Assembly: GCA_002134785.1 (NCBI GenBank)
Contig: MBQZ01000040.1
Coordinates: 62,001-126,000, forward strand
Origin: Crenothrix sp. D3
GTDB lineage: Bacteria; Pseudomonadota; Gammaproteobacteria; Methylococcales; Methylomonadaceae
Direction: 5' to 3'
DNA: 64,000 nt
The notes beneath the pieces were generated by a model. It made no database searches and was not told where the DNA came from. It saw only the letters and a list, made by a program, of their open reading frames with translations. Below are positions 1-16,508 of the stretch, piece after piece (position 1 is the stretch's first letter; each line of letters begins with the position of its first letter). Made by a program: the position numbers and the translations under genes.

Positions 1-513
1 GGTAAGATTGATTTTATCCGCTCTGTGGGTGGTCATGCCCGTTATTCGGTGAATTCGCTAGAGCAAGTAGCGCATGGTGAAGATACGCGCAAAGTCATTT
101 TGTATGCGAGAGTTTCAACGGCAGGGCAAAAAGAAGATTTGCAAAGTCAATCGGAGTACATCAGCAAAGCCTATCCACAATGCCGCGTTATTAGTGAAAC
201 GGGTTCAGGGATGAACTTCAAGCGTAAAAATTTCATAGAGATAATGGAAGCCGTTGCACGAAAGGAAGTTAAGCTGATTGTTGTTGCCCATAAAGACCGC
301 TTAGTACGGTTTGGTTTTGAGTTTATTGAGTGGTTTTGCAACAGTCATAACTGCCAGATTGAAGTCATCAATAACAGTTATAAAACGCCGCATCAAGAAT
401 TGGTGGATGATTTTATGGCTATCATGCACTGCTTTTCTTCCAAGCTTTATTTTTTACGGCGGTACAAGGATGAGATTAAAAAAGAAGTCGAACAGTTAGA
501 CAAACAGGCATGA
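1..513 (+). CDS. tnpA: IS607-type serine recombinase TnpA, 5' end cut by window edge
   Basis: The frame is open from base 1, so the gene begins outside the window; the GTG at 25 is only the first in-window start codon. The first residues (SVGGHARYSV) resemble the end of a MerR-like helix-turn-helix, as found at the N-terminus of IS607 transposases. The serine recombinase catalytic domain follows: YARVSTAGQKEDLQSQ contains the nucleophile serine, and HKDRLVRFG is the arginine-containing motif of this family. IS607 TnpA catalyses transposition through a serine-DNA intermediate with little target specificity. The stop codon overlaps the tnpB start (ATGA at 510-513), so the two genes are translationally coupled. 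Confidence in the family is high; whether the element is active cannot be judged because its left end is outside. Confidence 0.9.
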   Translation, partial: GKIDFIRSVGGHARYSVNSLEQVAHGEDTRKVILYARVSTAGQKEDLQSQSEYISKAYPQCRVISETGSGMNFKRKNFIEIMEAVARKEVKLIVVAHKDRLVRFGFEFIEWFCNSHNCQIEVINNSYKTPHQELVDDFMAIMHCFSSKLYFLRRYKDEIKKEVEQLDKQA

Positions 514-1892
514 TGTCCACCATGAAACCCTACACTGTCACCCAGATAGCCGATGCCGCAAAAAACGATATTGTTGAAATACAGAAAGCGCGAGAGCTTG
601 CGTATCGTTTGGGTGATTTGCGGGGCGATTTATGGAATAAGTTTGGCGGTGTGCAGGCGTGGGGAGAAAAACCCGATGGCTTGATACGCGATTTTAAACT
701 GACTAACCCGCCCGAATCCTACTCGCTAGATTTCAAGAATTGGGATAAAACCGCCTCCCAAGTGCTTGATGACATACAAATGACGCACGCGGCGATTCGT
801 GAGCAAGTGATTCGTAAAATCTACGCCCGTTACCCTGAAAAAGCCGAGCGTAGCGCGTTATGTAAGGCGTTAAAAACATTAGCGTATCAAGAAAACAACG
901 TATTGCATCGCTGGGTGCGTGATGCTTCGGGGCGTGGACATACTCAGGTTGATAATCATATCGTGCTGTGCCATAACAACGGCGCGAAGTTTAACCGTAA
1001 AAATCGAATCACCGAAGTGGTGTTTAACGGTTTACCAATGGAAGGCAAAAACAACCGTTACGAAAAAATTACTCTCAAATTCAAAACAGGCAAGGTCAAT
1101 CTTGCTGGTTACGCAACGATTATTTTCCATGAAGACGGTGTTATTCGACTGCACTACCCTATTAAAAAACCAGCCACTGTGAATGCCAGTCATGAGATTA
1201 TCGGCGTTGATAAAGGCTATACCGAAGCTCTGTACGGTTCAGACAAGGTTGTTTATGGGGCAGGAATCGGCAAGCTAATCAGCCAACAATCCGACTGGCT
1301 CAAAGCCAAAATGCAAAACCGCCATAAACTCCACGCCTTGTACAAAAAAACAGGCAACGAAGCAATAAGAAAAAATAATCTGGGACGTAAGGCACTCGAT
1401 AAGAGGACTAACGCCACCCAAGCGCAGTTGAAATCCATTATCCGTCGTGACGTGCGGGTTATTTTTTCGCAATTCGGCACAGTGGTTTGCGAAGATTTAT
1501 CAGGCAAGTTTAACGGTAAATCACGCGGCAAAAACACCAATAGAAAACTATCGGCATGGTGCAAAGGTGAAATCCACCAAGCATTGACAGAGATTGCCGA
1601 TAGAACAGGTTCAACAATCAAGATTGTCAATCCAGCTTACACATCGCAAGTCGATCATCTCACGGGTACGTTATTAGGTACTCGAAAAGGTGATTGCTTT
1701 ATCCGTTACACGGGGGATGTGGTTCAAGCGGACTATAACGCGGCTATGAATATCCTTGCCAGAGACAACGACAAGGACATTAACAGGGTCACGCCTTACC
1801 AAAAAGTGAAGCAAATCCTGTTGAAACGTACCGCGTGTTTCATGGAAACCATGAAACTCGGTGGCGGAGTACCCATCGAAGGTTTAGCGTAG
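510..1892 (+). CDS. tnpB: TnpB-family RNA-guided nuclease-like protein of IS607 element, atypical zinc region
   Basis: A 460-residue TnpB relative. The three RuvC-like acidic residues are visible: D234 in IIGVDKGYTEA, E328 in VVCEDLSGKF and D408 in VVQADYNAAMNI. TnpB proteins of IS200/605 and IS607 elements are RNA-guided DNA endonucleases, ancestral to Cas12, using an RNA from the element's right end. In most TnpBs two CxxC pairs between RuvC-II and RuvC-III bind zinc; here TSQVDHLTGTLLGTRKGDCF has one cysteine and no CxxC pair. The TSQ motif and spacing are kept, so this looks like a subgroup with a zinc-free insert rather than a frameshift. ATG codons at 510, 513 and 522 are all possible starts. 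A guide RNA gene would be expected around the 3' end of the gene and the bases after 1892, but its limits cannot be drawn from the sequence alone. Confidence 0.85.
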   Translation: MMSTMKPYTVTQIADAAKNDIVEIQKARELAYRLGDLRGDLWNKFGGVQAWGEKPDGLIRDFKLTNPPESYSLDFKNWDKTASQVLDDIQMTHAAIREQVIRKIYARYPEKAERSALCKALKTLAYQENNVLHRWVRDASGRGHTQVDNHIVLCHNNGAKFNRKNRITEVVFNGLPMEGKNNRYEKITLKFKTGKVNLAGYATIIFHEDGVIRLHYPIKKPATVNASHEIIGVDKGYTEALYGSDKVVYGAGIGKLISQQSDWLKAKMQNRHKLHALYKKTGNEAIRKNNLGRKALDKRTNATQAQLKSIIRRDVRVIFSQFGTVVCEDLSGKFNGKSRGKNTNRKLSAWCKGEIHQALTEIADRTGSTIKIVNPAYTSQVDHLTGTLLGTRKGDCFIRYTGDVVQADYNAAMNILARDNDKDINRVTPYQKVKQILLKRTACFMETMKLGGGVPIEGLA

Positions 1893-1958
1893 CTGTCAGA
1901 CACGAACCGTAAAAATAGGCGATTAGTGGTTATTTATCTCAAATATTACCATTTATTG

Positions 1959-2552
1959 TTACTCATAACGTGCATATAGCCAAAGCCCTGTCAGTAACAC
2001 GTTGCTAGCAATAAGTATCAGGTAACTAATGTTCAGATTTTCTAAACCGCCGACAATGGCGTAATACACCAAACCCCCACTGCATAACATCATGATGATA
2101 AAGAGACTGGCTGGCAGGGCAACAACACGATGCCAGTACGCACTTTCTATACTGCGCGGTGGTGAACAAGGTAAGCGTTTCCCCAATAGGTGTAAAGGTT
2201 TTAAACTTGCTTGATTCCACGCATAAAACAGGCAGGGTAACGGTACGACAAAAATGAGACCTTTCATCCAGTTAGCGATAACCAGCAGCTCACTCGCTTC
2301 CAATATCGCTAAGATGAACGCGCTGACAATTACCCAATAGGTTAGCAGTCTTGTCGTGCGATTAATTGTTTGGGTGTACTCTTGAATGAGTTGTTCGCAT
2401 TCTGTTAATGAACAAGGTAAACCGCACGTTTCAGGGTCTGGATGGTAATACACGACTGAGCCATTAGCCCGCATTTCAAATCGGGCGGCAAATTGGGCAA
2501 TGCGAGTGTGAGTAACAAGCGAGATGTAAGACATGGTAGGGCTAACCGCCAA
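1959..2552 (-). CDS. Hypothetical four-helix membrane protein
   Basis: A 197-residue protein I do not recognise. The first 70 or so residues are soluble-looking and include CGLPCSLTECEQ, with three cysteines. Four hydrophobic stretches follow, roughly at residues 66-90, 93-112, 145-168 and 173-193, so it is probably an inner-membrane protein with paired helices. It lies between the IS607 element and lplT on the same strand as lplT, with a 150-base gap to that gene, so co-transcription is uncertain. An alternative start at the internal methionine MSYISLV (residue 7) is possible. Confidence 0.6.
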   Translation of the reverse strand: MAVSPTMSYISLVTHTRIAQFAARFEMRANGSVVYYHPDPETCGLPCSLTECEQLIQEYTQTINRTTRLLTYWVIVSAFILAILEASELLVIANWMKGLIFVVPLPCLFYAWNQASLKPLHLLGKRLPCSPPRSIESAYWHRVVALPASLFIIMMLCSGGLVYYAIVGGLENLNISYLILIASNVLLTGLWLYARYE

Positions 2553-2703
2553 TAAAATGATTGTGAAATAATAGCGTGATAAGGTGCGCTAATCATAGGA
2601 TATGCTGAGGAACGAAGCGTATCGTTCGCGAATGATGCGCCTTCTATCGTCAGCACATCATGTACTAATCTACAGAACTAAATCGACAATCAATGGTATG
2701 GAG

Positions 2704-3867
2704 TTACTGTGGTTGATTATTATCAGGCAGGCAGAGCGACACCAAAAATGTTGCTATAAATACCAATACCCCCAAAGCTAACATTGCTATAACAGGATCA
2801 ATGTGTTGTGAAGCGGCGATGGTATAAGTACCGACTGCCAATAACATGGCTAAATTTTGAAAAAAGTTTTGCAAGGCAACCGCGCTACCGCTGCCGATGG
2901 TTTGTTGCCCTTGTTCTTGTAATACCGCGTTAATCGGGACGACAAATAGACCGCCCATCATACCGATAGCGAATAATACCGCTTGGGCAGGCATGACGCT
3001 GGTGGTGAAGCTCAGTCCAATAATAAATAGTGCCATCAGGTAGGCGGGGATTCTGGCACGGCGTAAATGTTCCATTGGGATTAAATACGGCACGACGATT
3101 GAACCGACGATGATGCCAACGGTTAAATATAAGGTTAAATCGGCAATTTCACTGGCATTTTTTGATAGTAATACCAGTGGAGCCCAGACGATTAAAATGA
3201 CGCGTAAACTGGCAGCAGCCGCCCAAAATAATGAGCCACCTAATACTGAAAAGCGTGAACGCGGCGTGGTAAAAAATAACGCCATTTGCTTACCGAATTC
3301 AACCAGTGCATTTTCAGTGCTGGTTTTTTTGGTGACTTTTACAGGCAGTGATAACGTTGCCAATGCGGAGACGACGAATAAGCCTATCGTCATAAACAAA
3401 GCGATTTGAGTGGAGTAATCAGCAATCATCGCACCTATTTTCATGCCTAATAAAATTGCCAGAATGGTTGAGCCTTCAATCCAGCTATTGGCTTTTAATA
3501 AGGCTTCATGACCTGCTAATTCAGGCAAGATACCGTATTTTGCAGGGCTATAAATTGCCGCACCAACACCGACGATACAGTAGGCAATCAACGGTTCTAC
3601 GCCTAGCAATAATAAACCTGCGCCGACGGCTTTAATGATGTTGGCAATGATTAATACATGAGATTTAGCATGATGATCGGCAAAGCCACCAACCCAAGGC
3701 CCAAGCACTACATAAGCAATCAAAAACATACTTTGCAAGGCAGGAATATACCAACTAGGCTGTGTGCCTGACTGCATGACGATGGCAATTACGGTGAATA
3801 AAATCGCATTATCAGCAAAGGCGGATAAAAACTGGGCAATCAATAAGGGGTAGATTTGTTTGTTCAT
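2704..3867 (-). CDS. lplT: Lysophospholipid transporter LplT
   Basis: A 387-residue major facilitator superfamily protein with about 12 hydrophobic segments, close to the usual LplT length. The N-terminus (LLIAQFLSAFADNAILFTV) and the segment AAIYSPAKYGILPEL are typical of LplT. LplT flips lysophospholipids, mainly 2-acyl-glycerophosphoethanolamine, inward across the inner membrane so they can be re-acylated. In enterobacteria it is next to or fused with the acyltransferase/acyl-ACP synthetase Aas; no aas gene is adjacent here, so the acylating partner must be elsewhere. The 261-base gap upstream toward the secretion locus holds palindromic repeats. Confidence 0.88.
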   Translation of the reverse strand: MNKQIYPLLIAQFLSAFADNAILFTVIAIVMQSGTQPSWYIPALQSMFLIAYVVLGPWVGGFADHHAKSHVLIIANIIKAVGAGLLLLGVEPLIAYCIVGVGAAIYSPAKYGILPELAGHEALLKANSWIEGSTILAILLGMKIGAMIADYSTQIALFMTIGLFVVSALATLSLPVKVTKKTSTENALVEFGKQMALFFTTPRSRFSVLGGSLFWAAAASLRVILIVWAPLVLLSKNASEIADLTLYLTVGIIVGSIVVPYLIPMEHLRRARIPAYLMALFIIGLSFTTSVMPAQAVLFAIGMMGGLFVVPINAVLQEQGQQTIGSGSAVALQNFFQNLAMLLAVGTYTIAASQHIDPVIAMLALGVLVFIATFLVSLCLPDNNQPQ

Positions 3868-3930
3868 AGTGGTTGAGTGTTGGGTGAAGGGGCATTGGGT
3901 GGTTTGTTAAATCGGTTATTGATGCTTATA

Positions 3931-4078
3931 GTTCGGAGTCCAAGGCATGACTTGGGCGATACAAAACGTGTTTTTAACTCCCCTAAACAACAGATTTATA
4001 GCTACACAATAAAATGATGTAGTGGCAATCCCTTGTGGTTGCCATGATACCAAGGGCAGGCACAAGACCTGCCCCTAC
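3931..4078. repeat. Palindromic repeats between tpsA and lplT
   Basis: Two elements are seen. At 3931-3956 the sequence GTTCGGAGTCCAAGGCATGA and its next bases recur at 32588-32612, upstream of ntrB. At 4053-4075 AGGGCAGG and CCTGCCCT form a hairpin with a seven-base loop. Both look like dispersed intergenic repeats; the second could also act in transcription termination, but it lacks a clear U-tract. Confidence 0.55.
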
Positions 4079-4128
4079 CTAATTTGAATCACAAATATTG
4101 CATTTGCTTGTAACACGCACCCTCTAAA

Positions 4129-7100
4129 CTAATCAGGTTTTTTAGTGCTTGAATCCTTAAGTATATCAGTCAACATAAAATCATTACCATGCGTGTAAAC
4201 AGCGGGGTCTTGACTAGCACCCAACATCTTTTTAGAAAATACGGGCAAGGTTTTGGTGATATTTTCTGCGACACCGTGAGCGGTAGTACTGCCTGTTGTG
4301 TCTTTCTTTGCGAGGTCTTGCGTAATTAAATAGGTAAATAAACCATGACCTAGGTTTTTTAATTCCGTGGCTTCTTGGTCTTTGGTGGTCGCAGTGATGA
4401 CAGTGATACCCAAAGAACGACTTAATTGACGGGTGAAATAACGCTGCCCGTTTTGTAATTGACTAAAGGCATTCATCCCCGCGCCTGAATAACAGGAGTC
4501 AACCATTAACAGAATGTGCTGTATTTTTGAGTTTTTGAAAATGTCGCTTAATTCGGTGGCAGTAATACCTGCGGCAGCAATTTTTTCAGGGGTATCTTGC
4601 AGGGTGGTTTCATGGGGTAAGAAGTACCATTCTTTACCCACGGCTAATCCATGTCCAGCAAAGTAAACCACTAAAACATCTTGTTGTGTGCCTTGGCTTA
4701 ATTCCTTGAGTTCTGCCAAAATTTTAGGTTTGGTGGCATTTTCATTAATCAGGTGTTTGCTGACCGTGGTTGTCGCCCCTGTTTTTATCGCTTGGACAAT
4801 GGCATTGGCATCGGCAACGCTGTAGTCTAAATCTAAATTAGCGTCACTGTATTTATCAATGCCAATAGTCAGTAGGCGTAAGGATGATGTGTAGGCTTTG
4901 GTTTTACCATCGAAACTGAGTTCAGTGCTGCTATTTTCAATGCCCATGTCATTGCTAGCAACGACTTTAAGGGTGTTTTTGCCCGCGCTGGGGGTGATAT
5001 TGACCATCAACGCACGATGATCATCTGTGTTGTCTTGCTGCGTTTGCGCTACGACCACATTGCCTTCGTTGCTAAGCAGTTTACCGTTATGGTAAAGGCT
5101 GATTTTATCAATGCCACCGCCGCGATTATAAACATCCAGCTGAACTGCGACGTTATCGCCTTTAGTTTGTTGCTCTGCCAGTTGCAAATTAACTTTAGGC
5201 GGTAAACTAATGCCGCCGCGTACACTATCGGAATCGCTGTTTAAGTAATCCTGATTTTGCAATACATTACTGAGTAGGCCGGGTTCGTAGTAGTTTTCAG
5301 AAAAATTATCTAAAGGAATTTCTTCTTCATTCGCTAGCCAACTGAAATTGGCCATCGCCTCTTCTGAACCATCAAAACGCCCGAAGCCATCCATGACTGT
5401 CCAGCCTTGGTGGGTAGAAAATAACCGTAGCATTTTTTTACCCGACGCAACATCCCACAATGCTAATTCGCCATTAGCCAGCACGGTTAGCAATTTTTTA
5501 CCGTCTTCTAACAACTTCGCGTTTTGAAAAGCGTTGTCTTTATTTTGTAGGCTTAAGCGAATATGACCTTGCCCATCGCCCACACGCACCGTGCCGTCTT
5601 TTAGCAGGTAAGCATAAGTGTCTTTTGCTTTATCAACGGCGACCAGTGATTCCGCAAAATTAACACTGGTTTCTTGTGTATTGCTGGGAATCGCCCAATC
5701 AAGCAGTTCGCCACTGGCTAAGCCTACAGACAGGGTATCGTTGTCTTTAAACTGCATATAAACAATTTGTTCACCCATGTTGGGTAAAGATTTAATGATT
5801 TTGCCCGTGTTGAGATCAACAATGTCTATCGCATCGGTGACACTTTTTAATTGCAAATTCGCAGGCATTACATAAGTACCCGCTTGACGGCTAAGCACCG
5901 CGCCATAACGTTTATTAGTCGTGAGTGCTAGATTGTGTACCGTGCCGCGTTGGTAAGGCAGTTGCCAGCGTTTTTTGTTTTGTTTGTTATCCCATAAATT
6001 CAGTTCATTTGCACCAAAGTCTACTAATAATAAACTGCCATCCTCGGAAGTCACAAAATGCGTTACGTCAGGTTGATTAATGGCTAATTTATCATCGGCA
6101 AGTGAGCTGATAATATCGTGTACATCAATGCCTGTTTTGCTGGCAATGGGTAACAAATCGCCTTTGTCATTAACTGTACCGATGTCGGTTAACTGTTGTT
6201 TATTATTCGAGGCGACGATTTGGCGTTGTATGCCGCTTTGAAAATCCCACACGCGCACTGAGCCATCCTCAAACAATAGCGATACAAAATTTCTATTCGC
6301 ACTCATTTCTAAATGCTTTACCCGTCCTGAGCTATTTTTTATTTTGAGAATTGGAATAATTGACCGTGTAGCTTCTTTGCTTTCTTTACGTTTTTGACAA
6401 TTGGGTAATTTGGTTTTTGGCTCTGATTCTGAGTCAGTACAAGGCAAATCACTTTTAACTTTTTCGAGATTGTCGGTAGCATTATTGGCAAAATCATCGG
6501 TAATATCATTGACAAACAAGTCCGAGGATACTGGGATTGCTTCAAAGCTAATGAGTGGCTTATTGCTTACTGAAGTAATCAAGCCAGCAATATTATCTTG
6601 TTCCGCTTGATTGATTGGTTGCACATCAACGGGTGTATTTTGTACGGGTGTATTCTGCACGGGTGGCACTACCACTGGCGGTAATATCTCTGGTAAGACA
6701 CTCAAATTGCCATTGACATAATTAATACGGTAGTTGTTCGCACTTAGACCCACTGGCGTAATGTCGTAAGTACCCACATTAATCGCGCCTTGACTATTGC
6801 CTGTGTAGTTTAGTGTGCCACTGAGTACCGCACTGGTTTCACCGTTCACAAAACCAGAGAAAATGACACCGTTACCACCTGAGTATGCTAAGCCATTGAA
6901 AACTTTGCTATCATTATTAGCTGTGATGGACAAGGTGGCAGGCGTGATACTCAAGGCAGTCTCATTACTTACAGCTTGCGTAAACAGGTAATTGCCATTG
7001 TTGGCGATTAGTCCTGAACCATTAATGGCGTAGTTACCGACATTGCTTAAATTAGTCGCCAGACTGGTAAAACTTGCTATGCCCGTGGTCGCACTGGCAA

Positions 7101-10100
7101 GGGTTTCTGTGCCAACAAAGCCTGTTACTGTACCTGAGAAAGCAGGATTAGCCGCGCCATAAACACGGGTGCTAGGATTTGCTGTGTAAATCAAGGTGGC
7201 TGGGGTGATATTAGCCGTCAGGATGGGCAGTTGTAATAAATAATTACTGGCATCTGCACCACTGATACTGTAGTTGTTAATCAAGGTAACGCCATTGTTA
7301 CCGACATTGGGCGAAACAAAACTACCTGTCGCTGTGCCACTGAGATTAACTAGGTCAAACGTAATCGGGGTAACGAATGCCGTACCGCTTAATGTAGCCG
7401 CAGTTGTGCTATCGTAAATTTTATTATTGGCACTAATACCCGTAATCGGAAGCGGTAATGGCGTGATGGTCAATTCATTAAGCGAGTTTCTGTTATCAGC
7501 AAAGCTGTAACCTAAACTACTGAGTAAGCCAGAGTTATAAACAGCATCGTGCAAACCCACAATAAAATTGCCTGATGTTGAAGTTGCACCAAAGGTATCA
7601 AATAATGCCGCGCCTGAAATGCCCGCTGTTGTCGCGGTATCGCCATCAATAAAGCCTGTGTAATTAGGGATATAAGCCCCAATAGCGGTGCTGTAAGTGA
7701 TGGTTTTTAAATCGGGTGCTACTAATAATTGGGGGGCGACGGTGTAGAAAAACCAATTACCCGTCGTGGCGTAACTAGGGATAACGCCAGAGGTATAAGT
7801 TTGATTATAATGCTTGTTAAAGTTAAGCATTCCTTCCAGTGAATTGGCTGGATTGCTTGAATAAACAAAGTACTGCCCCGTCCCCGTAATGGCAATGCCT
7901 GAATTAATGGGCGACACATTGTTAATAAAGTCTCGTCCTGCCGCTAATATAATATTACCGTCTGCTGTCACCACAGGTTGATTCAGAATTAAATCTGACG
8001 TTGTGCCTAAGGCTTCTATCGTAACTGTTCCAGTGCCTGTCGGATCTATACCATTTATGGTCAATGTTTGACTGTTGACTAGATTCAATGAGCCACTACC
8101 CAAAACAGCTGCCACTGTACCGATGGTGTTAGCGGGGTTATTGAAGTTAAAGAATGAATTCGTGCCTCTAAGTAGTAGATTACTCACATTCAACGCAGGC
8201 GTACTGGTCACTGTGCCATTACCGACTGTCGCAACAGTCAACACCCCTGCTACCGTATTACTCGCACCACTGAACGTTAAATCACTGCCTGTTAGTAAAT
8301 CCACATCGTAACTATTAACAAAATTTAAGCCACTGACATTCATGATGCCTGTGGTGGATGAGCCGAATACCACTTTAGAGAAAGTAGGTGAAACAGGTAA
8401 ACCCGCACCAAACAATGAAAGATCGACAGTTAACTGGCTGTTACCACCTGCCCCCACTTGCACCGTCATGGATCGATTGGTGGTTTTAGGTCTGATAGTC
8501 AAAATACCCGTTGAACTGAGTCTATCGCTGGCAAGCGGTGTTCCCGCTAGGGATGAAGTTGCTAAATTAAGACTATCGGCAATAATGTCAATACTGCTGC
8601 TTGATGTCGGAACTATTGAGCCAGCTTGTTGTCCGAGTGTACCTGTACTTTCGATAGCAGAGCGTGTTGTCCCAGTCGTTGCCCCATCTAAAATAATTCC
8701 GCCACTGTTAGCAAGAATATTAACATGGGGGGCTATATGAACGCCCGCATCTCTATTGCTACTGCCTATCAGAGTAATGCCGCCACCGCCTGTTGCGGCA
8801 ATGGTCTTTTCTTCAGGGACTCCTACATCATTTTGTGAGTAATTGGTGAGAATACCATAACCCTGTGATACCGCCGCCGCGTTGACAGCGGCTGTTCCTG
8901 TTAAGCGAATGGCATTAGCAGTGGTATTGGCTGACCTAATATCGATTATGCCAAAACTACCTATTTCAATACCATTGCTTAGCATACCCGTACCTTGTCC
9001 TTGCGCAATACCGTCTATGCTGATTGTGCCAGTCCCTGAATTAATAGAACTGTTGCCACTAATGTAAACGCCGTCAACGTGTTGCGCTCCTCCAATAGAT
9101 GACGCTAAATCGCTACTTCTGCCACGCATCACAATATTACCACCACCCGAATTTAGAGTGGCATAATCTAGCCATAGCCCATTTAAATCAGACCCGTTAC
9201 CTTGCGCATACCCTGCACCATTTATTCCCCCTGAAAAGCTAATATTGCCACCATTGCTATTAATGGTTGTATTTTGAATTTGGATTGCCCCACCGTTGCT
9301 GCCATCTGAATCAGATTGAAAAGCAAGATTAAGTCCACCTGCTAGACTGTCAATAGTGACCAAATTAATGTAAATGTTATTGGCAGCTCTTAAAGTCAAC
9401 GAAGCATCACCGCCTCCCTGCTTGGTGATTGAAGCATTCACCGTGATATTCCCTGCTTCCAAGCCTGTGCCAGTGGTTGTAATAGTGACAGCTGTTCCAC
9501 TATTTAATACAGCCTCAATCGCAGATGGATTGATTTGTGAACCCGACGCGTTAGGTATCCATGTATTACCTAAAAAACTACCAAAAAAACCAATAGGATC
9601 AGTGGTCGTGGTGATGGTAACATCCCAAGGATCAAGTAACCATGTACCCGCTTTTCCCAGCGGTGCAACAGTATCAACCTTAATACCCTCAACATCTAAC
9701 CAATGCCCAGAGGTTTCAATACGACCACCATCGCCGCCATTCACGCCGCCTTTAGCGAGAAAAGTTCCCCACGCCCGCGTAGCAGAGTTGGGATTATGAA
9801 TATTTGACCACGCAACTACTGTACCGCCTTTGCCATTGTCAGTTGCACTGGCATCGAGAACCGCGCCTTGTTTAACAACAGTTGCATTAGCTTGGCGCAC
9901 GCTGGTATCAGAGTTTTGCCAGCTACCACCGACGAGAATATCACCGCCGCCTGTCGCCCCTGCTGCATTAAGCGTTGCGGTACTGTCCACTAATACTTTG
10001 TCACCCGTGACAACTAGCTTGCCACCTTTTTCACCCGCGCCGTTACCGCTCACATCCAGTGTACCGCTGACTTGAGTGATGCCGTTGTCACCACCATCCA

Positions 10101-10971
10101 AAATGATTTCGCCGTTACGTTCTACTAAGCCGCGTGCCTTAACCACCCCCTCTTGATTAATCACCGTATCAAGCAATTGATTAGCGGCTTTGGCACTCAT
10201 GACCACGCGCCCACCGTCAGCTTGTATCGCGCCTTGATTGGTGATTTGTGCGTTTAATGCGGCTTCGGTGACTTTGACTGCAACCAGTCCATCGCCTTGA
10301 AAATCCAAGTCCACGGTTTTACCTGCGGCTAACGCAGTTGTGCCTTTCGGGGTATTTATCGTTCCCGTATTAGTTACTTTCTCACCAATCAACGCCACCA
10401 CGCCGCCGTCTTTGGTATTAATCATGCCGTGATTTTCTAGGCTGCCCGTCGCACCGTTTTGGGTGAAATGTTGATTGCCATTGATAAAATCAGCGTTGTT
10501 GATGTCGTGAGTCGTGGCGATTAAACCACCCACATCGACTTGTGCCGTTTTACTAAAGACGACACCGTTGGGATTGACTAAATAGACTTGACCGTTAGCA
10601 TTGATTTGCCCTTGAATTTGACTGGCATCCTGCCCCACCACTCGATTAAGCAACGCCGCATTGGCATCGGGTTGATTAATATTGACCGCCTCAGTAGGCG
10701 CGACCGAAAAACCTTGCCAATTAATCACCGCTTTTTGACTGGCTTGGTCAATTTGCATCACGTTAGCAGTTGGCGTACTCACCGTCGCTTGCCCTGCAAC
10801 CAGTTGGTCGCCCGTTGGTAATGCCCACGTCGGCGTAGTACAAATTAACAAGCTGGTCGCTAATAGCTTGCGACGATTAACAGAGCGTTTGCCTTGCCCT
10901 TTGCTAATTTCTGACACGGCAACCCACGCGTTTAAGGCTTCATTCCAAATACTACGGTAGATGTGGTTCAT
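4129..10971 (-). CDS. Two-partner secretion exoprotein (TpsA) with C-terminal caspase-like protease
   Basis: A 2280-residue protein. It starts with an extended signal peptide region (MNHIYRSIWNEALNAWVAVS), with cleavage expected after A50 (TPTWA|LP). The filamentous-haemagglutinin secretion domain follows to about residue 170, with NPNG at 133-136. A long beta-helical stretch leads to YDG and MBG-type repeats near 1175-1420, then a proline-rich linker. About 1545-1875 resembles a beta-propeller (DGSVRVWDF, GELALWDVASGKK) and ends with GWTVMDGFGRFDGS, a motif often seen before bacterial caspase domains. From about 2030 there is a peptidase C14 domain with the dyad H2107 (VVYFAGHG) and C2160 (MVDSCYSG). 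A good Shine-Dalgarno (AAGGA) precedes the ATG. It is third in a tpsB-tpsA-tpsA cluster and should be exported by the TpsB at 14751. Secretion and protease activity are inferred from family. Confidence 0.88.
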   Translation of the reverse strand: MNHIYRSIWNEALNAWVAVSEISKGQGKRSVNRRKLLATSLLICTTPTWALPTGDQLVAGQATVSTPTANVMQIDQASQKAVINWQGFSVAPTEAVNINQPDANAALLNRVVGQDASQIQGQINANGQVYLVNPNGVVFSKTAQVDVGGLIATTHDINNADFINGNQHFTQNGATGSLENHGMINTKDGGVVALIGEKVTNTGTINTPKGTTALAAGKTVDLDFQGDGLVAVKVTEAALNAQITNQGAIQADGGRVVMSAKAANQLLDTVINQEGVVKARGLVERNGEIILDGGDNGITQVSGTLDVSGNGAGEKGGKLVVTGDKVLVDSTATLNAAGATGGGDILVGGSWQNSDTSVRQANATVVKQGAVLDASATDNGKGGTVVAWSNIHNPNSATRAWGTFLAKGGVNGGDGGRIETSGHWLDVEGIKVDTVAPLGKAGTWLLDPWDVTITTTTDPIGFFGSFLGNTWIPNASGSQINPSAIEAVLNSGTAVTITTTGTGLEAGNITVNASITKQGGGDASLTLRAANNIYINLVTIDSLAGGLNLAFQSDSDGSNGGAIQIQNTTINSNGGNISFSGGINGAGYAQGNGSDLNGLWLDYATLNSGGGNIVMRGRSSDLASSIGGAQHVDGVYISGNSSINSGTGTISIDGIAQGQGTGMLSNGIEIGSFGIIDIRSANTTANAIRLTGTAAVNAAAVSQGYGILTNYSQNDVGVPEEKTIAATGGGGITLIGSSNRDAGVHIAPHVNILANSGGIILDGATTGTTRSAIESTGTLGQQAGSIVPTSSSSIDIIADSLNLATSSLAGTPLASDRLSSTGILTIRPKTTNRSMTVQVGAGGNSQLTVDLSLFGAGLPVSPTFSKVVFGSSTTGIMNVSGLNFVNSYDVDLLTGSDLTFSGASNTVAGVLTVATVGNGTVTSTPALNVSNLLLRGTNSFFNFNNPANTIGTVAAVLGSGSLNLVNSQTLTINGIDPTGTGTVTIEALGTTSDLILNQPVVTADGNIILAAGRDFINNVSPINSGIAITGTGQYFVYSSNPANSLEGMLNFNKHYNQTYTSGVIPSYATTGNWFFYTVAPQLLVAPDLKTITYSTAIGAYIPNYTGFIDGDTATTAGISGAALFDTFGATSTSGNFIVGLHDAVYNSGLLSSLGYSFADNRNSLNELTITPLPLPITGISANNKIYDSTTAATLSGTAFVTPITFDLVNLSGTATGSFVSPNVGNNGVTLINNYSISGADASNYLLQLPILTANITPATLIYTANPSTRVYGAANPAFSGTVTGFVGTETLASATTGIASFTSLATNLSNVGNYAINGSGLIANNGNYLFTQAVSNETALSITPATLSITANNDSKVFNGLAYSGGNGVIFSGFVNGETSAVLSGTLNYTGNSQGAINVGTYDITPVGLSANNYRINYVNGNLSVLPEILPPVVVPPVQNTPVQNTPVDVQPINQAEQDNIAGLITSVSNKPLISFEAIPVSSDLFVNDITDDFANNATDNLEKVKSDLPCTDSESEPKTKLPNCQKRKESKEATRSIIPILKIKNSSGRVKHLEMSANRNFVSLLFEDGSVRVWDFQSGIQRQIVASNNKQQLTDIGTVNDKGDLLPIASKTGIDVHDIISSLADDKLAINQPDVTHFVTSEDGSLLLVDFGANELNLWDNKQNKKRWQLPYQRGTVHNLALTTNKRYGAVLSRQAGTYVMPANLQLKSVTDAIDIVDLNTGKIIKSLPNMGEQIVYMQFKDNDTLSVGLASGELLDWAIPSNTQETSVNFAESLVAVDKAKDTYAYLLKDGTVRVGDGQGHIRLSLQNKDNAFQNAKLLEDGKKLLTVLANGELALWDVASGKKMLRLFSTHQGWTVMDGFGRFDGSEEAMANFSWLANEEEIPLDNFSENYYEPGLLSNVLQNQDYLNSDSDSVRGGISLPPKVNLQLAEQQTKGDNVAVQLDVYNRGGGIDKISLYHNGKLLSNEGNVVVAQTQQDNTDDHRALMVNITPSAGKNTLKVVASNDMGIENSSTELSFDGKTKAYTSSLRLLTIGIDKYSDANLDLDYSVADANAIVQAIKTGATTTVSKHLINENATKPKILAELKELSQGTQQDVLVVYFAGHGLAVGKEWYFLPHETTLQDTPEKIAAAGITATELSDIFKNSKIQHILLMVDSCYSGAGMNAFSQLQNGQRYFTRQLSRSLGITVITATTKDQEATELKNLGHGLFTYLITQDLAKKDTTGSTTAHGVAENITKTLPVFSKKMLGASQDPAVYTHGNDFMLTDILKDSSTKKPD

Positions 10972-11059
10972 GATATATTCCTTCTTATGTTTATTTCACG
11001 TTGCCAAGTTATTTTTGAAAACGATGAACAGCATATTTTTGTTCGCTCTTAACATTCTA

Positions 11060-14000
11060 TCAGTCTGCGGGTAATTTAATACCACCCTTTTCAATCAAAA
11101 TAGTTACTTCTGAATCATCCTGCTTAACGGATTGTGTTTTTTGGTTGCCCAAAAATGTCGTGGCAACCTGTAGCGGTACACGTTGATCTTCCAGATTGTA
11201 GCCGATAGGTTCAGTTTGCTTTCTATCTATCAACAGTGCGGGTTCAATGATTAATTGTCCATCTCCATAACTGATTTGGTAATTATCCGCGCTTAAGCCA
11301 CTGGGGGTAATCCAATAAGAACCCACATTAATCGCACCCTGACTATTGCCGCCATAATTAAGGTTGCCGAATAACACTGCATTGGTTTCACCATTCAAAA
11401 ACCCCGTATAGCGAACACCATTACCCCCAGAGTAACCGAGTCCATCATAGACTTTGTTGGCATCGTTAGCGGTGATAAGTAGATTGGCTTTGTTAATGGT
11501 TAATACGCTATTCACATAGCTGATGTCATAGCCTTGTTGGTCTGAATAAAGCCCTGTGGGTATGTAGCTACCAGCATTTTTAATGCTGTAAGGATTGGCT
11601 TGATTAAATAAATGCCCGCTGGTGGTTGCATTAGCAAGTGAATAACGAGGATTGCTTAAGACACTATCGCTTAAGCCATTGTAGGTTTTCGTGATGTTAT
11701 CAGCGGTGATGGTTAAGGGGGTTAAAAAAGAGCGTAGCAAAGGCGCGGTTTGTCCTTCGTAGATACGCCATATTGCGGAGCTGCCGCCTGTATTGGCTAT
11801 ATCCCAACCTGCATTACTGAACGTTGCCAGTTGCATCATTTCAGCGGTGGTTTTGCCTGAGACATTGTTTAATGTGCCACTTTCATTACGACCAATGCCA
11901 CTGTTAATGTCTTTGCCAGTCGTTTCTGTGTTCCAGAAGGCGTTGTTGATAGCACTGGGTTTGTAGTAGCGGCCGAAGCCGCGGTGGTAGGTGTTTATAT
12001 CTCTGTTGCTTCCCAGCAACCCGCTAGCATATCTAATGCCACTGACACTACCCGTTGCATAGACGTTGTTGATAGTACCGCCTATGTTTTCTCCCGCCAG
12101 CCCACCGATATAATTATTACCACTGACACTACCCGTGGTATAGGCATTATTGATAGTACCGCTGTTTTCTCCCACCAGCCCACCGATATTGTCATTACCA
12201 TTGACACTACCCGTGGTATAGGCATTGCTGATAGTGCCGTGGCTGTAATTAAATCCCACCAGCCCGCCGACATCTATGCCACCACTGATATTGCCCGTTG
12301 CGTTGACATTGCTGATAGTACCGTTGTTAATTCCCACCAGCCCACCGACTTCCATGTTGCCACTGACATTGCCCGTTGCGTAGGCGTTGCTGATAATGCC
12401 AGAATTAGATCCAACCAGCCCGCCAACAATAAGATTACCAGTGACACTGCCCGTTGCATAGGCGTTGCTAATAGTGCCACTGTTGTTTCCCACCAGACCA
12501 CCATAATGATCGCCCCGACCACCGCTGACACTACCTGTTGCGTAGGCGTTGCTGATAGTGCCAGAATTAGATCCCACCAACCCGCCAACAGAACCCATAC
12601 CACTGACACTACCCGTTGCGTAGACATTACTGATAGTGCCGTAGTTACCTCCCACCAGTATACCCGTGTGTTGATTCCATAAATAAAAAGTAGTAGGAGA
12701 AGCAACCGAAGCATTAATTAATCCAATATCACGCAGCAATCCACCAGCCCCAATATCAGCAAACAAACTGACACCACCTGAAGTTTTTGCACTATCAATG
12801 GTTAAGTTAGAAATAGTGTGTCCCAAGCCATGAAACTGCCCAGTGAACATTGAGTTGGATGTTCCAATAGGCTCAAACCCCGTCCCCGTCGCGGAAGCCC
12901 AGTTTTGCGCAGGAGTCGCATCAATATTGCCGCCGAGGGCATAATTACCCGTCAGATTATTTTGAATGCCTTGTAAGCTGGTTGTGCTGGTGTCGTTAAC
13001 CACGCCTAAGTCGGTAATCACGGTGTAATTAGTGACTGCCCCATCTGAGCCTAAGCGCGTGCTGAAATTATTGCCTGCGGGTAAATTAACCGCTGCTCGC
13101 ACAACATAATCACTGGTATTGCCCGCCGCCAGCGCACCTTGCCCAACTTCCAAGGCTAATTTCGCGCTGCCTGAGCCGTTTAGAATGCTGTCTATATTGA
13201 TGTTGCGGTACGCGGACAGGGTGAGGTTATTGGCTGCCCAAGCAATCACATCATTGACAAAAATATCGCCGTTCCCTGCACTATTACCCGCTCCACAAGT
13301 CGATCCCGTACAGGTTGCTGATGCTGTACCCGTTTGAATTTTTACATTGCCGTTTGTTAATGCAACACTTAATGCCGTACCTGTGATGTCGCCACCTGTG
13401 GCGGCAATGGTGAAGTCAACAGGGTCTATGAACCAAGTGCCGCTGTTGCCGTGCTTCGCCTGCGTGCTAATTTTCGCGGAATCGGCAATGTTGATGTGGG
13501 CGGAGGAGGTTTCAATTTTGCCACCATTCCCTGTGTTGGGTGCAGTGGCATTGAGCTTGCCCGCTACGTTCACTGTGCCGTTGTTCATGTTGGCTAATAC
13601 GTTGATGCTACCTGCGTTGCCACGATTTAGAGCAATGGCGTTGACGCTGGCATTTTCAGCGATGTGGGTTTCGCGAGTGGTTTGTGTGTTGCCGATATTA
13701 ATAACGCCACCGCCTGCCTCACCTGAGGCGGTGACTGCCGCGCCGTTGTTTAGCTGTACGGCTTTACCTGTGACGTTAATCGTGCCGCCTGTGTTTTGTC
13801 CGTCGGTGCTGAGTGTGCCGCTGACTTTCACCACGCCGTTATCACCCCCGTCGAGTACAATCTCACCGTTACGTTCGATTAAGCCTCGCGCTTTCACAAC
13901 ACCGTTTTGATTAATCACGGTATCAAGCAATTGATTAGCCGCTTTCGCACTCATGACCACACGCCCACCGTCGGCTTGTATCGCTCCTTGGTTGGTGATT

Positions 14001-14725
14001 TGTGCATTCAGTGCGGCTTCAGTGACTTTGACCTCAACCAGTCCATCACCTTGAAAATCCAAGTCCACGGTTTTACCTGCGGCGAGAGCTGTTGTGCCTT
14101 TCGGGGTGTTTATCGTTCCAGTGTTAGTCACTTTTTCACCAATCAACGCCACCACGCCGCCGTCTTTGGTATTAATCGTACCGTGATTTTCAACACTGCC
14201 CGTCGCGCCGTTTTGGGTAAAGTGATTATTGCCGTTGATAAAATCTTGGTTGGAAATCTCATGCGTGGTGGCGATTAAACCACCGACATCGACTTGCGCC
14301 GTTTTACTAAAGACGACACCGTTGGGATTGACCAGATAAACCTGCCCATTGGCGTTGAGTTGCCCTTGAATCTGACTGGCATCCTGCCCAACCACGCGAT
14401 TGAGTAACGCGGCTTGGGCATTGGGTTGTTGAATGTTAACCGCTTCGTTAGGATTGATAGAAAACCCTTGCCAGTTAATAACAGCTTTTTGACTGGCTTG
14501 GTTAATCTGCATTTGCCCAGCACTGGGTGTGTTGACGGTTGCTTGTCCTGCCACCACTTGTTCACCCGTCGGTAATGCCCACGTCGGTGTGGCACAAATT
14601 AACAAGCCAGTCGCCAATAATTTGCGACGATTAACAGAGCGTTTGCCTTGTCCTTTGCTAATTTCTGACACGGCGACCCACGCTCCTAATGCTTTATTCC
14701 AAACACTACGGTAGATGTGGTTCAT
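11060..14725 (-). CDS. Two-partner secretion exoprotein (TpsA) with GLUG and MBG repeats
   Basis: A 1221-residue paralogue of the neighbouring 2280-residue exoprotein. The first roughly 290 residues are nearly the same, including the extended signal peptide (cleavage expected after A50), the haemagglutination-activity secretion domain and the NPNG motif. After about 330 the two diverge. Residues near 680-910 hold about eight to nine GLUG-type repeats of the form GGLVGxNSGTISNAYATGSV, the class also found in some bacterial adhesins. MBG-like repeats follow near 1000-1160, and a short basic/acidic tail ends the protein with no caspase domain. It lies 25 bases after tpsB and 88 bases before the second exoprotein gene, consistent with one operon. 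The likely role is surface or released adhesin; the target is unknown. Confidence 0.85.
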   Translation of the reverse strand: MNHIYRSVWNKALGAWVAVSEISKGQGKRSVNRRKLLATGLLICATPTWALPTGEQVVAGQATVNTPSAGQMQINQASQKAVINWQGFSINPNEAVNIQQPNAQAALLNRVVGQDASQIQGQLNANGQVYLVNPNGVVFSKTAQVDVGGLIATTHEISNQDFINGNNHFTQNGATGSVENHGTINTKDGGVVALIGEKVTNTGTINTPKGTTALAAGKTVDLDFQGDGLVEVKVTEAALNAQITNQGAIQADGGRVVMSAKAANQLLDTVINQNGVVKARGLIERNGEIVLDGGDNGVVKVSGTLSTDGQNTGGTINVTGKAVQLNNGAAVTASGEAGGGVINIGNTQTTRETHIAENASVNAIALNRGNAGSINVLANMNNGTVNVAGKLNATAPNTGNGGKIETSSAHINIADSAKISTQAKHGNSGTWFIDPVDFTIAATGGDITGTALSVALTNGNVKIQTGTASATCTGSTCGAGNSAGNGDIFVNDVIAWAANNLTLSAYRNINIDSILNGSGSAKLALEVGQGALAAGNTSDYVVRAAVNLPAGNNFSTRLGSDGAVTNYTVITDLGVVNDTSTTSLQGIQNNLTGNYALGGNIDATPAQNWASATGTGFEPIGTSNSMFTGQFHGLGHTISNLTIDSAKTSGGVSLFADIGAGGLLRDIGLINASVASPTTFYLWNQHTGILVGGNYGTISNVYATGSVSGMGSVGGLVGSNSGTISNAYATGSVSGGRGDHYGGLVGNNSGTISNAYATGSVTGNLIVGGLVGSNSGIISNAYATGNVSGNMEVGGLVGINNGTISNVNATGNISGGIDVGGLVGFNYSHGTISNAYTTGSVNGNDNIGGLVGENSGTINNAYTTGSVSGNNYIGGLAGENIGGTINNVYATGSVSGIRYASGLLGSNRDINTYHRGFGRYYKPSAINNAFWNTETTGKDINSGIGRNESGTLNNVSGKTTAEMMQLATFSNAGWDIANTGGSSAIWRIYEGQTAPLLRSFLTPLTITADNITKTYNGLSDSVLSNPRYSLANATTSGHLFNQANPYSIKNAGSYIPTGLYSDQQGYDISYVNSVLTINKANLLITANDANKVYDGLGYSGGNGVRYTGFLNGETNAVLFGNLNYGGNSQGAINVGSYWITPSGLSADNYQISYGDGQLIIEPALLIDRKQTEPIGYNLEDQRVPLQVATTFLGNQKTQSVKQDDSEVTILIEKGGIKLPAD
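11984..12714. repeat. Tandem GLUG-encoding repeat array inside tpsA
   Basis: Roughly 70-75-base units encode GGLVGxNSGTISNAYATGSVxG on the minus strand, about eight full copies plus a degenerate one. Units differ mostly at the variable linker residues (for example GNLIV, GNMEV, GNDNI). Such arrays change length by recombination or slippage. The array keeps long open frames on the opposite strand, which are shadows rather than genes. Confidence 0.85.
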
Positions 14726-14750: not shown

Positions 14751-16508
14751 TTATTGAAACGTTTTTGTCACTTGAAAATAGGCTTGTGGCGCATTTTGAT
14801 TAGGGTCTGACGTAGGCTGTGTGCCGACATCACGCCACGCTAAACTGGTACGCACGGTGATATTTGCTAAACCTAGCCAATTAATGCCAAACCCATAACC
14901 TGTTAAATGGCGCGAGTTATTGTTAAATAACGGATTAGCGTTGATGCGTGAAAAACCCGTATCAATAAAACCAATCAGTTGAAAATTACCTGGAATATGT
15001 TCAATTGTGGGTAAGTTATAACGGGCTTCACCGTTAAATATCCAGCCTTCGTCGGCACTGCCTTCACCGACAGGATAAGCACGAATAGCCGTTGGGCCAC
15101 CTAAACTGATTTGCTCAGAACTGTCGAGATTTTTGCTGGCGACTTGACCACTAAAATTAGCGTACAAACTCACGTCACCCCATTGACTATCGCCCCAAAT
15201 ATTTTGAGTACGATTAAGCTGCCAATCAAGTTTGTGATAACCCCCATTGGTATTAAGCCCTGATAGGTTGTCGGCAAGCGCGGCGATTTGATCGGTAAAA
15301 TAAACTTCGCCTGCTGATACACTCAGAAAACCTTGTGTTAAACCCCCAGTGGGTAGAATGTTGTCATGCAAACTGCCTGCAAATGAAAAGCTCATCAAAT
15401 TGATTTCACGGTCATTATGCGGATTAACGTAGCTAGGATAACCAATGTTGTCTTGTAGCCAGCGGTGTTCATAATGTGCAATCCCTGTAAGCCGCGCATC
15501 ACGACTTAAATACAAAGGATGTGTCAGACTAGCACCCACAGTCCGTGCCAGACCCGTGGCATCTAACGGCGTAAAACTACGCCCCAAACTATAATTCAAT
15601 TGCGAAAAATTAACGCCTAATTGCGTCCCATAGCCATTAATCGGTACGCTATAATTTGCTGCCCCCATGACTGAACCGCCTGAATCCGTAGTTTGAACCC
15701 GCAATGCCAATTGATCGCCTAAACCAAAAGGATTAACAACATTCAGCCCCCCCTCAAAGCGGTAGTAACCCGTAGAATACAAGCCGTGATTATCGGTAGA
15801 CACATAACCATTGATAAGCGGCTTTTCTTTCACTTTCAGTGCTAAAGCCGTTGTGCCTGCTTTACTACCGGGTGATAACACCAGTTTACCGTTGATACTG
15901 GGCAGGTCATTAATGAGTAAACTTAAATGACTCAACTCGGCATCCGTTACTAACTCGCCTTGTTTATTGGTATTAAGAAAGCGTTGCAGCACTTCTTTAT
16001 TAATGCGCGTATCGCCCATCAATTCAATCGCATTGCCGTTCAAATGTGAACCATCTAAATGACCTTCGAGAATCACAATCTCCACAATGCCATTTTTAAT
16101 GGATTGCGCAGGTAAATACGCCTGAGCAATTAAATACCCTGCTTTACGATAATAATCAGTAATCGCATTCGCGGCAGCTTGCAAATCATCAAAGCTCACA
16201 GGATGCCCCTTGTAATTAGTCAACAAGGCTTGCAACTCATCATTACTAAATTGACTATTACCGCTAAAGGAAAACGTCTGCACCGTCACCCGCAAATCGC
16301 TTTGTCGCTGCATCGGTGGGCGTGGTTGATCCCTATTTTCTATACTGATTTCGGGTTTTTGCTTCGGTAGTTCAGGCATTTCGCGACTTTCTCGCATTAA
16401 CAAACCTGAGTTGGGTACTTGTGGCGGCGCGGCTTCCGCAACGGGCATCAAGCTGGTAAATAGCAACAGAGTGATGGCATTAAGTGCGTATGGATGAAGT
16501 GAGTTCAT
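14751..16508 (-). CDS. TpsB outer-membrane transporter (ShlB/FhaC/HecB family)
   Basis: A 585-residue protein with a signal peptide (cleavage expected after A26, PVAEA|APP), a proline-rich periplasmic stretch, and a POTRA domain from about residue 73 (TVQTFSFSGNSQFSNDELQA) to 150. A 16-strand barrel-type C-terminal half follows, from about 190 to the end. The motif IRAYPVGEGSADEGW near the C-terminus matches the conserved VRGY/IRGY loop tip of the FhaC family. TpsB proteins recognise the TPS domain of their TpsA partner in the periplasm and thread it across the outer membrane. The gene is first in the cluster and is followed 25 bases later by the first of two exoprotein genes, so one transporter probably serves both. 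Length and order fit the family. Confidence 0.9.
   Translation of the reverse strand: MNSLHPYALNAITLLLFTSLMPVAEAAPPQVPNSGLLMRESREMPELPKQKPEISIENRDQPRPPMQRQSDLRVTVQTFSFSGNSQFSNDELQALLTNYKGHPVSFDDLQAAANAITDYYRKAGYLIAQAYLPAQSIKNGIVEIVILEGHLDGSHLNGNAIELMGDTRINKEVLQRFLNTNKQGELVTDAELSHLSLLINDLPSINGKLVLSPGSKAGTTALALKVKEKPLINGYVSTDNHGLYSTGYYRFEGGLNVVNPFGLGDQLALRVQTTDSGGSVMGAANYSVPINGYGTQLGVNFSQLNYSLGRSFTPLDATGLARTVGASLTHPLYLSRDARLTGIAHYEHRWLQDNIGYPSYVNPHNDREINLMSFSFAGSLHDNILPTGGLTQGFLSVSAGEVYFTDQIAALADNLSGLNTNGGYHKLDWQLNRTQNIWGDSQWGDVSLYANFSGQVASKNLDSSEQISLGGPTAIRAYPVGEGSADEGWIFNGEARYNLPTIEHIPGNFQLIGFIDTGFSRINANPLFNNNSRHLTGYGFGINWLGLANITVRTSLAWRDVGTQPTSDPNQNAPQAYFQVTKTFQ

What the first reader, a model, noticed from the sequence alone, without database searches (positions are those of the whole stretch)
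4129..10971. Two-partner secretion exoprotein fused to a propeller-like region and an intact caspase-type protease
Seen: one 2280-residue frame joins an ESPR/haemagglutinin secretion domain, YDG/MBG repeats, a beta-propeller-like stretch ending in GWTVMDGFGRFDGS, and a C14 domain with both catalytic residues (H2107 in YFAGHG, C2160 in DSCYSG). Known: TpsA proteins are exported through TpsB, and bacterial C14 caspases are usually cytoplasmic and act in programmed death or regulation. Inference: the caspase could be displayed or released outside the cell and act on surface proteins, itself, or competitors. The unusual point is the pairing of an export module with an intact protease.
Basis: partly seen in the sequence, partly recalled or inferred. 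Interest (0 to 1): 0.75.

Follow-up and report, generated by a model that had tools for sequence, protein, structure and literature searches.

The report
Secreted adhesin carrying a caspase-type protease
A methane-eating bacterium, and a group of its relatives, make a giant surface protein whose export end is fused to an intact caspase-like protease; the fusion is real, conserved and kept by selection, but which side of the outer membrane the protease works on, and what it cuts, is still unknown.

Summary
One 2280-codon frame on the minus strand (4129-10971) joins ESPR, TPS domain, YDG/MBG_2, a WD40-type propeller, an Ig-like segment and Peptidase_C14 with H2107 and C2160. It follows a second TpsA and a TpsB gene on the same strand. 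The host is a Methylococcales methanotroph. Eighteen further copies of the fused type occur in Methylococcales, often beside a TpsB gene. All keep the His-Cys dyad. They form one clade nested among stand-alone propeller-Ig-C14 proteins with Sec-like signal peptides, so the export module was added once to an already exported protease. A second, propeller-less TPS-C14 type (C14 24-28% identical to the window's) arose separately in other Gammaproteobacteria, once in a single-contig chromosome. Selection on C14 is strong (dN/dS 0.07). A Cys pair sits just before the protease module in 8/19 and 3/3 cases. [quoted passage not shown] No paper describing TPS-C14 fusions was found. New variant of a known kind.

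The parts
4129..10971 (-). TpsA-type exoprotein fused to WD40 propeller, Ig-like segment and C14 protease, 2280 aa
10837..10971 (-). ESPR extended signal peptide (residues 1-45)
   Evidence: Pfam PF13018 E 9e-16
10063..10794 (-). TPS secretion domain (residues 60-303), with the NPNG motif region (NCBIfam adhes_NPXG)
   Evidence: PF05860 E 5e-38; TIGR01901; PDB relatives EtpA 8vba/8cpk, HxuA 4i84/4rm6
7477..10041 (-). beta-helical/repetitive stalk (residues 311-1165), EtpA-like to about residue 700; the stretch between TPS and propeller varies 315-2917 aa in relatives
7234..7464 (-). YDG domain (residues 1170-1246)
   Evidence: PF18657
6682..7191 (-). two MBG_2 domains (best stretch residues 1261-1332; end of the second approximate)
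   Evidence: PF18676
6382..6651 (-). disordered linker with Cys pair C1511/C1525 and basic stretch QKRK just before the propeller
   Evidence: (pLDDT under 50 at the linker)
5362..6375 (-). WD40-type beta-propeller (residues 1533-1870), ends in GWTVMDGFGRFDGS
4897..5361 (-). MID segment, beta-sandwich/Ig-like by predicted strands (residues 1871-2025)
   Evidence: conserved in stand-alone relatives
4276..4872 (-). Peptidase_C14 (caspase) domain, residues 2034-2232
   Evidence: PF00656 E 1e-12; AF2 model of the domain matches MALT1 paracaspase and caspase-6
4651..4653 (-). catalytic His2107
4492..4494 (-). catalytic Cys2160 (DSCYSG); the only Cys in the C-terminal 755 residues of this protein
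11060..14725 (-). second TpsA (1221 aa): ESPR, TPS, GLUG repeats, MBG_2; no protease; its 5' part is 73-92% identical in DNA to that of the fused gene
14751..16508 (-). TpsB transporter (585 aa): POTRA_2 + ShlB

Best explanation
It is a TpsA adhesin with its own protease attached. Sec exports the chain by way of the ESPR signal; the TPS domain engages the TpsB encoded nearby and the beta-helical/MBG stalk is threaded to the cell surface (inferred from family). The C-terminal propeller-Ig-caspase module, inherited from a Sec-exported protease, folds at the end of the chain. My preferred reading is that a small disulphide loop and/or the folded module itself stops translocation, so the module stays on the periplasmic side of TpsB, anchors the stalk, and cuts after basic residues (inferred from the DxC motif and related families) in the linker or in nearby envelope proteins to shed the stalk, a cis version of what the separate protease LapG does to CdrA. 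Shown: architecture, dyad, conservation, selection, gene neighbourhood, single origin, Cys pair. Inferred: topology, activity, specificity, substrate.
For: Domains and gene order with TpsB. 19 fused copies including the window's, one clade with SH-aLRT 100 inside stand-alone relatives with Sec-like signals. TpsB genes next to or near the fused gene in L053, L055, L058, L064, L065, L066, L067 and the window. Dyad invariant in all 30 aligned relatives, fused and stand-alone. dN/dS 0.066 in C14 and 0.058 in TPS against 0.23 in the middle stalk. Cys: in the 14,247 residues of the C-terminal modules there are 20 Cys, 19 of them catalytic, yet the 25 residues before the propeller hold 16 Cys of 475 against 25 of 18,892 in the stalks. 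The unrelated propeller-less type has C-x10-C just before C14 in 3 of 3. HMW1/HxuA disulphide anchor and CdrA release by periplasmic LapG: PMC5422565; CdrA cysteine hook: PMC11898600. The linker is disordered in the model.
Against: 11 of 19 fused proteins lack the Cys pair. PMC8151025 notes that closely spaced Cys make small loops that need not block translocation. The basic/dibasic content of the linker (9/19) is only modestly above that of the propeller (0.27 of windows) and C14 (0.18). The second TpsA in the window has no C-terminal Cys pair. No export, activity or processing was measured.
Confidence: 0.4

Rival explanations
1. The whole chain crosses the outer membrane and the propeller-caspase module is displayed at the tip of the stalk or shed, where it acts on extracellular proteins (matrix, competitors, predators, nutrients). 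This is the first reader's reading, with the propeller as the substrate- or partner-binding part.
For: Standard TPS logic; TPS-secreted proteases exist (LepA of Pseudomonas aeruginosa, PMC5422565). Stalk length varies 315-2917 aa while both ends are conserved, as expected of a spacer carrying a functional head. Near-absence of Cys other than the catalytic one fits passage through the pore.
Against: A folded WD40 propeller plus caspase must stay unfolded in the periplasm, although the relatives fold after plain Sec export; Cys pairs sit exactly before the module.
Confidence: 0.38
2. A regulatory or pseudo-enzyme: the C14 domain mainly senses or scaffolds (propeller binding, plug for TpsB) and proteolysis is minor.
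For: No activity data; the propeller and Ig-like parts are as well conserved as many binding modules.
Against: Both catalytic residues, and the Asp two places before the Cys, are invariant in all 30 relatives; the catalytic Cys is kept where nearly every other Cys has been lost.
Confidence: 0.1
3. A contact-dependent inhibition (CDI-like) toxin whose C-terminal caspase is delivered into neighbouring cells.
For: TPS stalk with a C-terminal enzyme, like CdiA in outline; fratricide by extracellular metacaspases has been suggested (PMC3501461).
Against: The C-terminus is among the most conserved parts, not polymorphic; no gene recurs downstream that could be an immunity gene: the neighbours differ or are TpsB.
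Confidence: 0.06
4. Assembly artefact or chance fusion.
For: The window's genome and most relatives are fragmented assemblies, most of them metagenome bins.
Against: The same fusion in five genera of the family, on a 1.7-Mb contig of Methylobacter sp. KS41 (L053), and a separate TPS-C14 fusion in a single-contig chromosome (L130/L140).
Confidence: 0.01

Closest known systems
EtpA / HMW1 / HxuA class of TpsA adhesins with TpsB partner
   Same: ESPR (in EtpA- and HMW-like proteins), TPS domain, beta-helical body, TpsB gene nearby; EtpA is the best solved relative of the first 700 residues; Cys pair as in the HMW1/HxuA anchor
   Different: About 750 further residues carrying propeller, Ig-like segment and C14 protease; the Cys pair lies before that module, not at the C terminus
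CdrA-CdrB with the separate periplasmic protease LapG (Pseudomonas aeruginosa)
   Same: TPS adhesin anchored by a cysteine hook and released by a cysteine protease (PMC5422565, PMC11898600)
   Different: Here the protease is of another fold (caspase, not the LapG type) and is part of the adhesin polypeptide; the function is inferred only
LepA, TPS-secreted protease of Pseudomonas aeruginosa
   Same: A TpsA that is a protease (PMC5422565)
   Different: No relation of the protease domain is known to me; here the domain is caspase-type, behind a WD40 propeller
WD40-containing prokaryotic metacaspases/orthocaspases (Peptidase_C14)
   Same: WD40 is the commonest partner domain of bacterial metacaspases (PMC3501461); His-Cys dyad; relatives in Bacteroidota, Acidobacteriota, Nitrospinota and others share the propeller-MID-C14 order, mostly with signal-like N termini
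   Different: None in that survey's text is joined to a TPS/haemagglutinin domain
MALT1 paracaspase
   Same: Best Foldseek match of the C14 model (E 2.9e-9)
   Different: 10-15% identity; domain context unrelated

Membership tests
TpsA (two-partner secretion exoprotein) | TPS secretion domain near the N terminus | tested here: met
   PF05860 132 bits against a cut-off of 33.5; EtpA/HxuA structures
TpsA (two-partner secretion exoprotein) | ESPR / Sec signal | tested here: met
   PF13018 58.5 bits
TpsA (two-partner secretion exoprotein) | Cognate TpsB gene with POTRA and ShlB-type barrel nearby | tested here: met
   14751-16508, PF08479 + PF03865; also beside relatives
TpsA (two-partner secretion exoprotein) | Export through TpsB | not testable with these tools
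   needs fractionation with and without TpsB
Peptidase_C14 (caspase-like) | Profile match and caspase fold | tested here: met
   PF00656 above cut-off; Foldseek to MALT1 and caspase-6. No PDB chain found by sequence profile
Peptidase_C14 (caspase-like) | His-Cys dyad | tested here: met
   H2107/C2160; invariant in 30 relatives
Orthocaspase/metacaspase type (basic P1) | Acidic S1 pocket, cleavage after Arg/Lys | tested here: inconclusive
   Asp at Cys-2 and the SVADA Asp are invariant; that they line S1 is recalled knowledge; basic P1 of orthocaspases: PMC6426788. No activity tested
CDI toxin (CdiA) | Polymorphic C-terminal toxin with adjacent immunity gene | tested here: not met
   C-terminus conserved, no recurring downstream gene
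HMW1/HxuA-type anchored TpsA | Disulphide loop at the C terminus holding it in the TpsB pore | tested here: inconclusive
   Cys pair present in 8/19, but before the protease module

The most novel reading that the evidence does not exclude
Bacteria have at least twice joined a two-partner secretion stalk to a caspase-type protease, placing the protease directly behind a disulphide hook. The result would be an adhesin that carries its own anchor and its own release switch, with the caspase working in the cell envelope on stalk shedding instead of in cell death. The variant in which the caspase is displayed outside is equally unreported as far as I could search.
Probability: 0.35. Interest if true: 0.75.

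Novelty: new variant of a known kind. Interest (0 to 1): 0.52.

Why it matters
Prokaryotic caspase homologues are mostly discussed in cell death and regulation, and localisation could not be assigned for most of them (529 of 671 in PMC3501461). Here is a family, conserved and under selection, whose gene structure ties the protease to outer-membrane export. That gives a concrete compartment and a testable substrate (its own linker or stalk). It also bears on how large folded C-terminal domains end up in TPS proteins, and on how methanotrophs build and shed surface adhesins.

Tried and rejected
Viral contigs: no relative. PDB sequence search with the C14 profile alone: nothing at 0.01, only chance hits at 10, so I used a fold search instead. 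Foldseek with the whole module only returned WD40 propellers among the matches shown. Promoter and terminator scans around the operon gave no more than shuffles, so a shared transcript is inferred from strand and short gaps only (25 bases TpsB-TpsA, 88 bases TpsA-TpsA). The dibasic linker as an autocleavage site: enriched over the stalk, but the propeller and C14 also contain such pairs, so kept only as weak evidence. CDI-like toxin rejected as above. The idea that the C14 domain is a decayed passenger was rejected by the invariant dyad and dN/dS. Long-frame C14 hits L131, L133, L137, L138 and L139 carried no TPS domain, nor did the frames in L132, L134 and L135.

Full report
What is there. 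The frame lies on the minus strand, 10971 down to 4129, 2280 codons without interruption. Pfam finds ESPR 1-45, TPS 60-303, YDG 1170-1246, two MBG_2 stretches, WD40-type propeller models over about 1533-1855, and Peptidase_C14 2034-2232. NCBIfam adds adhes_NPXG and a weak EACC1-associated caspase match below its cut-off. The best solved relatives of the N-terminal 700 residues are EtpA, then HxuA-type proteins. The dyad H2107/C2160 is as reported. The propeller is WD40-like by profile (APAF1 and other WD40 chains, E about 1e-20) and by AlphaFold2 model (mean pLDDT 84; Foldseek). The C14 domain modelled alone (pLDDT 73) matches MALT1 and caspases. Between them lies a conserved segment predicted as beta strands (MID), read as Ig-like.

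Neighbourhood. Upstream on the same strand are a second TpsA without a protease (11060-14725) and a TpsB (14751-16508; POTRA_2 and ShlB), separated by 88 and 25 bases. The first 900 bases of the two tpsA genes are 73-92% identical and then drop to about 50%, as expected if both use the same TpsB. The genome has one further TpsA/TpsB pair on contig C21. It carries pmoA (PF02461, E 1e-129), and the named relatives are Methylococcales, so the host is a methanotroph of that order.

Relatives. In 201 genomes of the family, 11 in five genera have C14 relatives at 64-82% identity in long frames (1238-3995 aa, a few cut by contig ends), while the rest with strong hits have 45-51% identity in frames mostly of 769-818 aa. 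Reading the loci shows what these are. The first class are TPS-propeller-MID-C14 fusions, sometimes in tandem (L041/L054, L053, L060) and often next to a TpsB gene (L053, L055, L058, L064, L065, L066, L067). The second class are stand-alone propeller-MID-C14 proteins with Sec-like signal peptides. Farther relatives in Bacteroidota, Acidobacteriota, Nitrospinota and other groups have the stand-alone order too, mostly with signal-like N termini. A tree of the C-terminal module puts all 19 fused proteins, the window's included, in one clade (SH-aLRT 100) nested in the Methylococcales stand-alone proteins, i.e. one fusion event. In L059 the TPS part and the rest are in different frames 26 bases apart: a broken copy or sequencing error. 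In Methylobacter KS41 the TPS domains of the two tandem fused genes are identical at synonymous sites (dS 0.00) while the rest differ (dS 0.8 or more), which suggests gene conversion of the export domain.

A second origin. Among 369 genomes of the class, C14 hits in long frames included three more TPS-C14 proteins: L130/L140 (TPS, FG-GAP, YDG, MBG_2, C14; single-contig 3.7-Mb chromosome) and L129/L141 and L136/L142 (TPS, GLUG, C14; one genome). They have no propeller. Their C14 domains are 48-78% identical to each other but only 24-28% to the window's. L140 and L141 have a TpsB-like gene directly upstream. So the pairing arose at least twice.

Selection. Between the window and L067 (UBA4132), dN/dS is 0.058 in TPS, 0.066 in C14, 0.10 in MID, 0.14 in the propeller and 0.23 in the middle stalk. 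The stretch between TPS and propeller ranges from 315 to 2917 residues. Both ends are held; the spacer is free.

Cysteines and topology. In 14,247 residues of C-terminal module from 19 proteins there are 20 Cys, 19 of them catalytic. By contrast the 25 residues just before the propeller hold 16 Cys, always in pairs, in 8 proteins, against 25 in 18,892 residues of stalk (Fisher p 8e-16, not corrected for kinship). All three propeller-less proteins have C-x10-C just before the C14 domain. In HMW1 and HxuA a disulphide at the C terminus locks the exoprotein in the TpsB pore, and in CdrA the periplasmic C-terminal tail is cut by the periplasmic protease LapG to release the adhesin (PMC5422565; cysteine hook of CdrA, PMC11898600). 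A protease placed behind such a hook would be on the periplasmic side. I prefer this reading slightly over full display, but 11 of 19 lack the pair, and closely spaced Cys need not block translocation (PMC8151025).

Premise corrected. In this genome, by eye, the other C14 proteins mostly have lipoprotein-like (L001, L004), Sec-like (L003, L147) or membrane-anchor (L146) N-termini, and the direct ancestors look exported. No signal-peptide predictor was available, so these calls are visual. The earlier survey also found many metacaspases with N-terminal helices likely to be signal peptides, and it mentions possible extracellular or fratricidal roles (PMC3501461). What is new is the coupling to a TPS stalk.

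Literature. Searches for two-partner secretion with caspase, C14 with haemagglutinin, the Pfam name Haemagg_act with caspase, and TPS with CHAT or Methylobacter returned no paper describing this fusion. The library holds open-licence papers only, so this is not proof of absence. Genomes outside the Gammaproteobacteria were not searched for TPS-C14 fusions beyond the relatives found.

Verdict. A real, conserved, independently repeated architecture: a TpsA exoprotein with a built-in caspase-type protease. Activity, specificity and side of the membrane are not shown.

Noticed in passing
L053 (Methylobacter sp. KS41), 527-6496 and 6878-12307: Two tandem fused genes with identical synonymous sites over the TPS domain but strong divergence elsewhere: likely gene conversion of the export domain.
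   Followed up: partly
window 25-1892 (+): Resolvase-type recombinase followed by a TnpB/Cas12f-like protein: an IS607-like mobile element.
   Followed up: no
L148 2245-3660 and 3569-4147 (own genome, contig C51): Another WD40-C14 relative split over two overlapping frames: apparently frameshifted.
   Followed up: no
L140 14366-19003 and 2456-3193: Near the propeller-less TPS-C14 gene lie ORFs that look, by eye, like an FHA-domain protein, a PP2C-type phosphatase, a further protein downstream, and an FGE-sulfatase-like protein: possibly a Ser/Thr signalling neighbourhood.
   Followed up: no
window 17142-19727 (+): Multi-PAS histidine kinase divergently placed beside the tpsB start; could regulate the operon.
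   Followed up: no
L082, L043 and other stand-alone relatives: A widespread family of proteins with signal-like N termini, WD40 propeller, MID and C14, in Bacteroidota and many other phyla, apparently little studied.
   Followed up: partly
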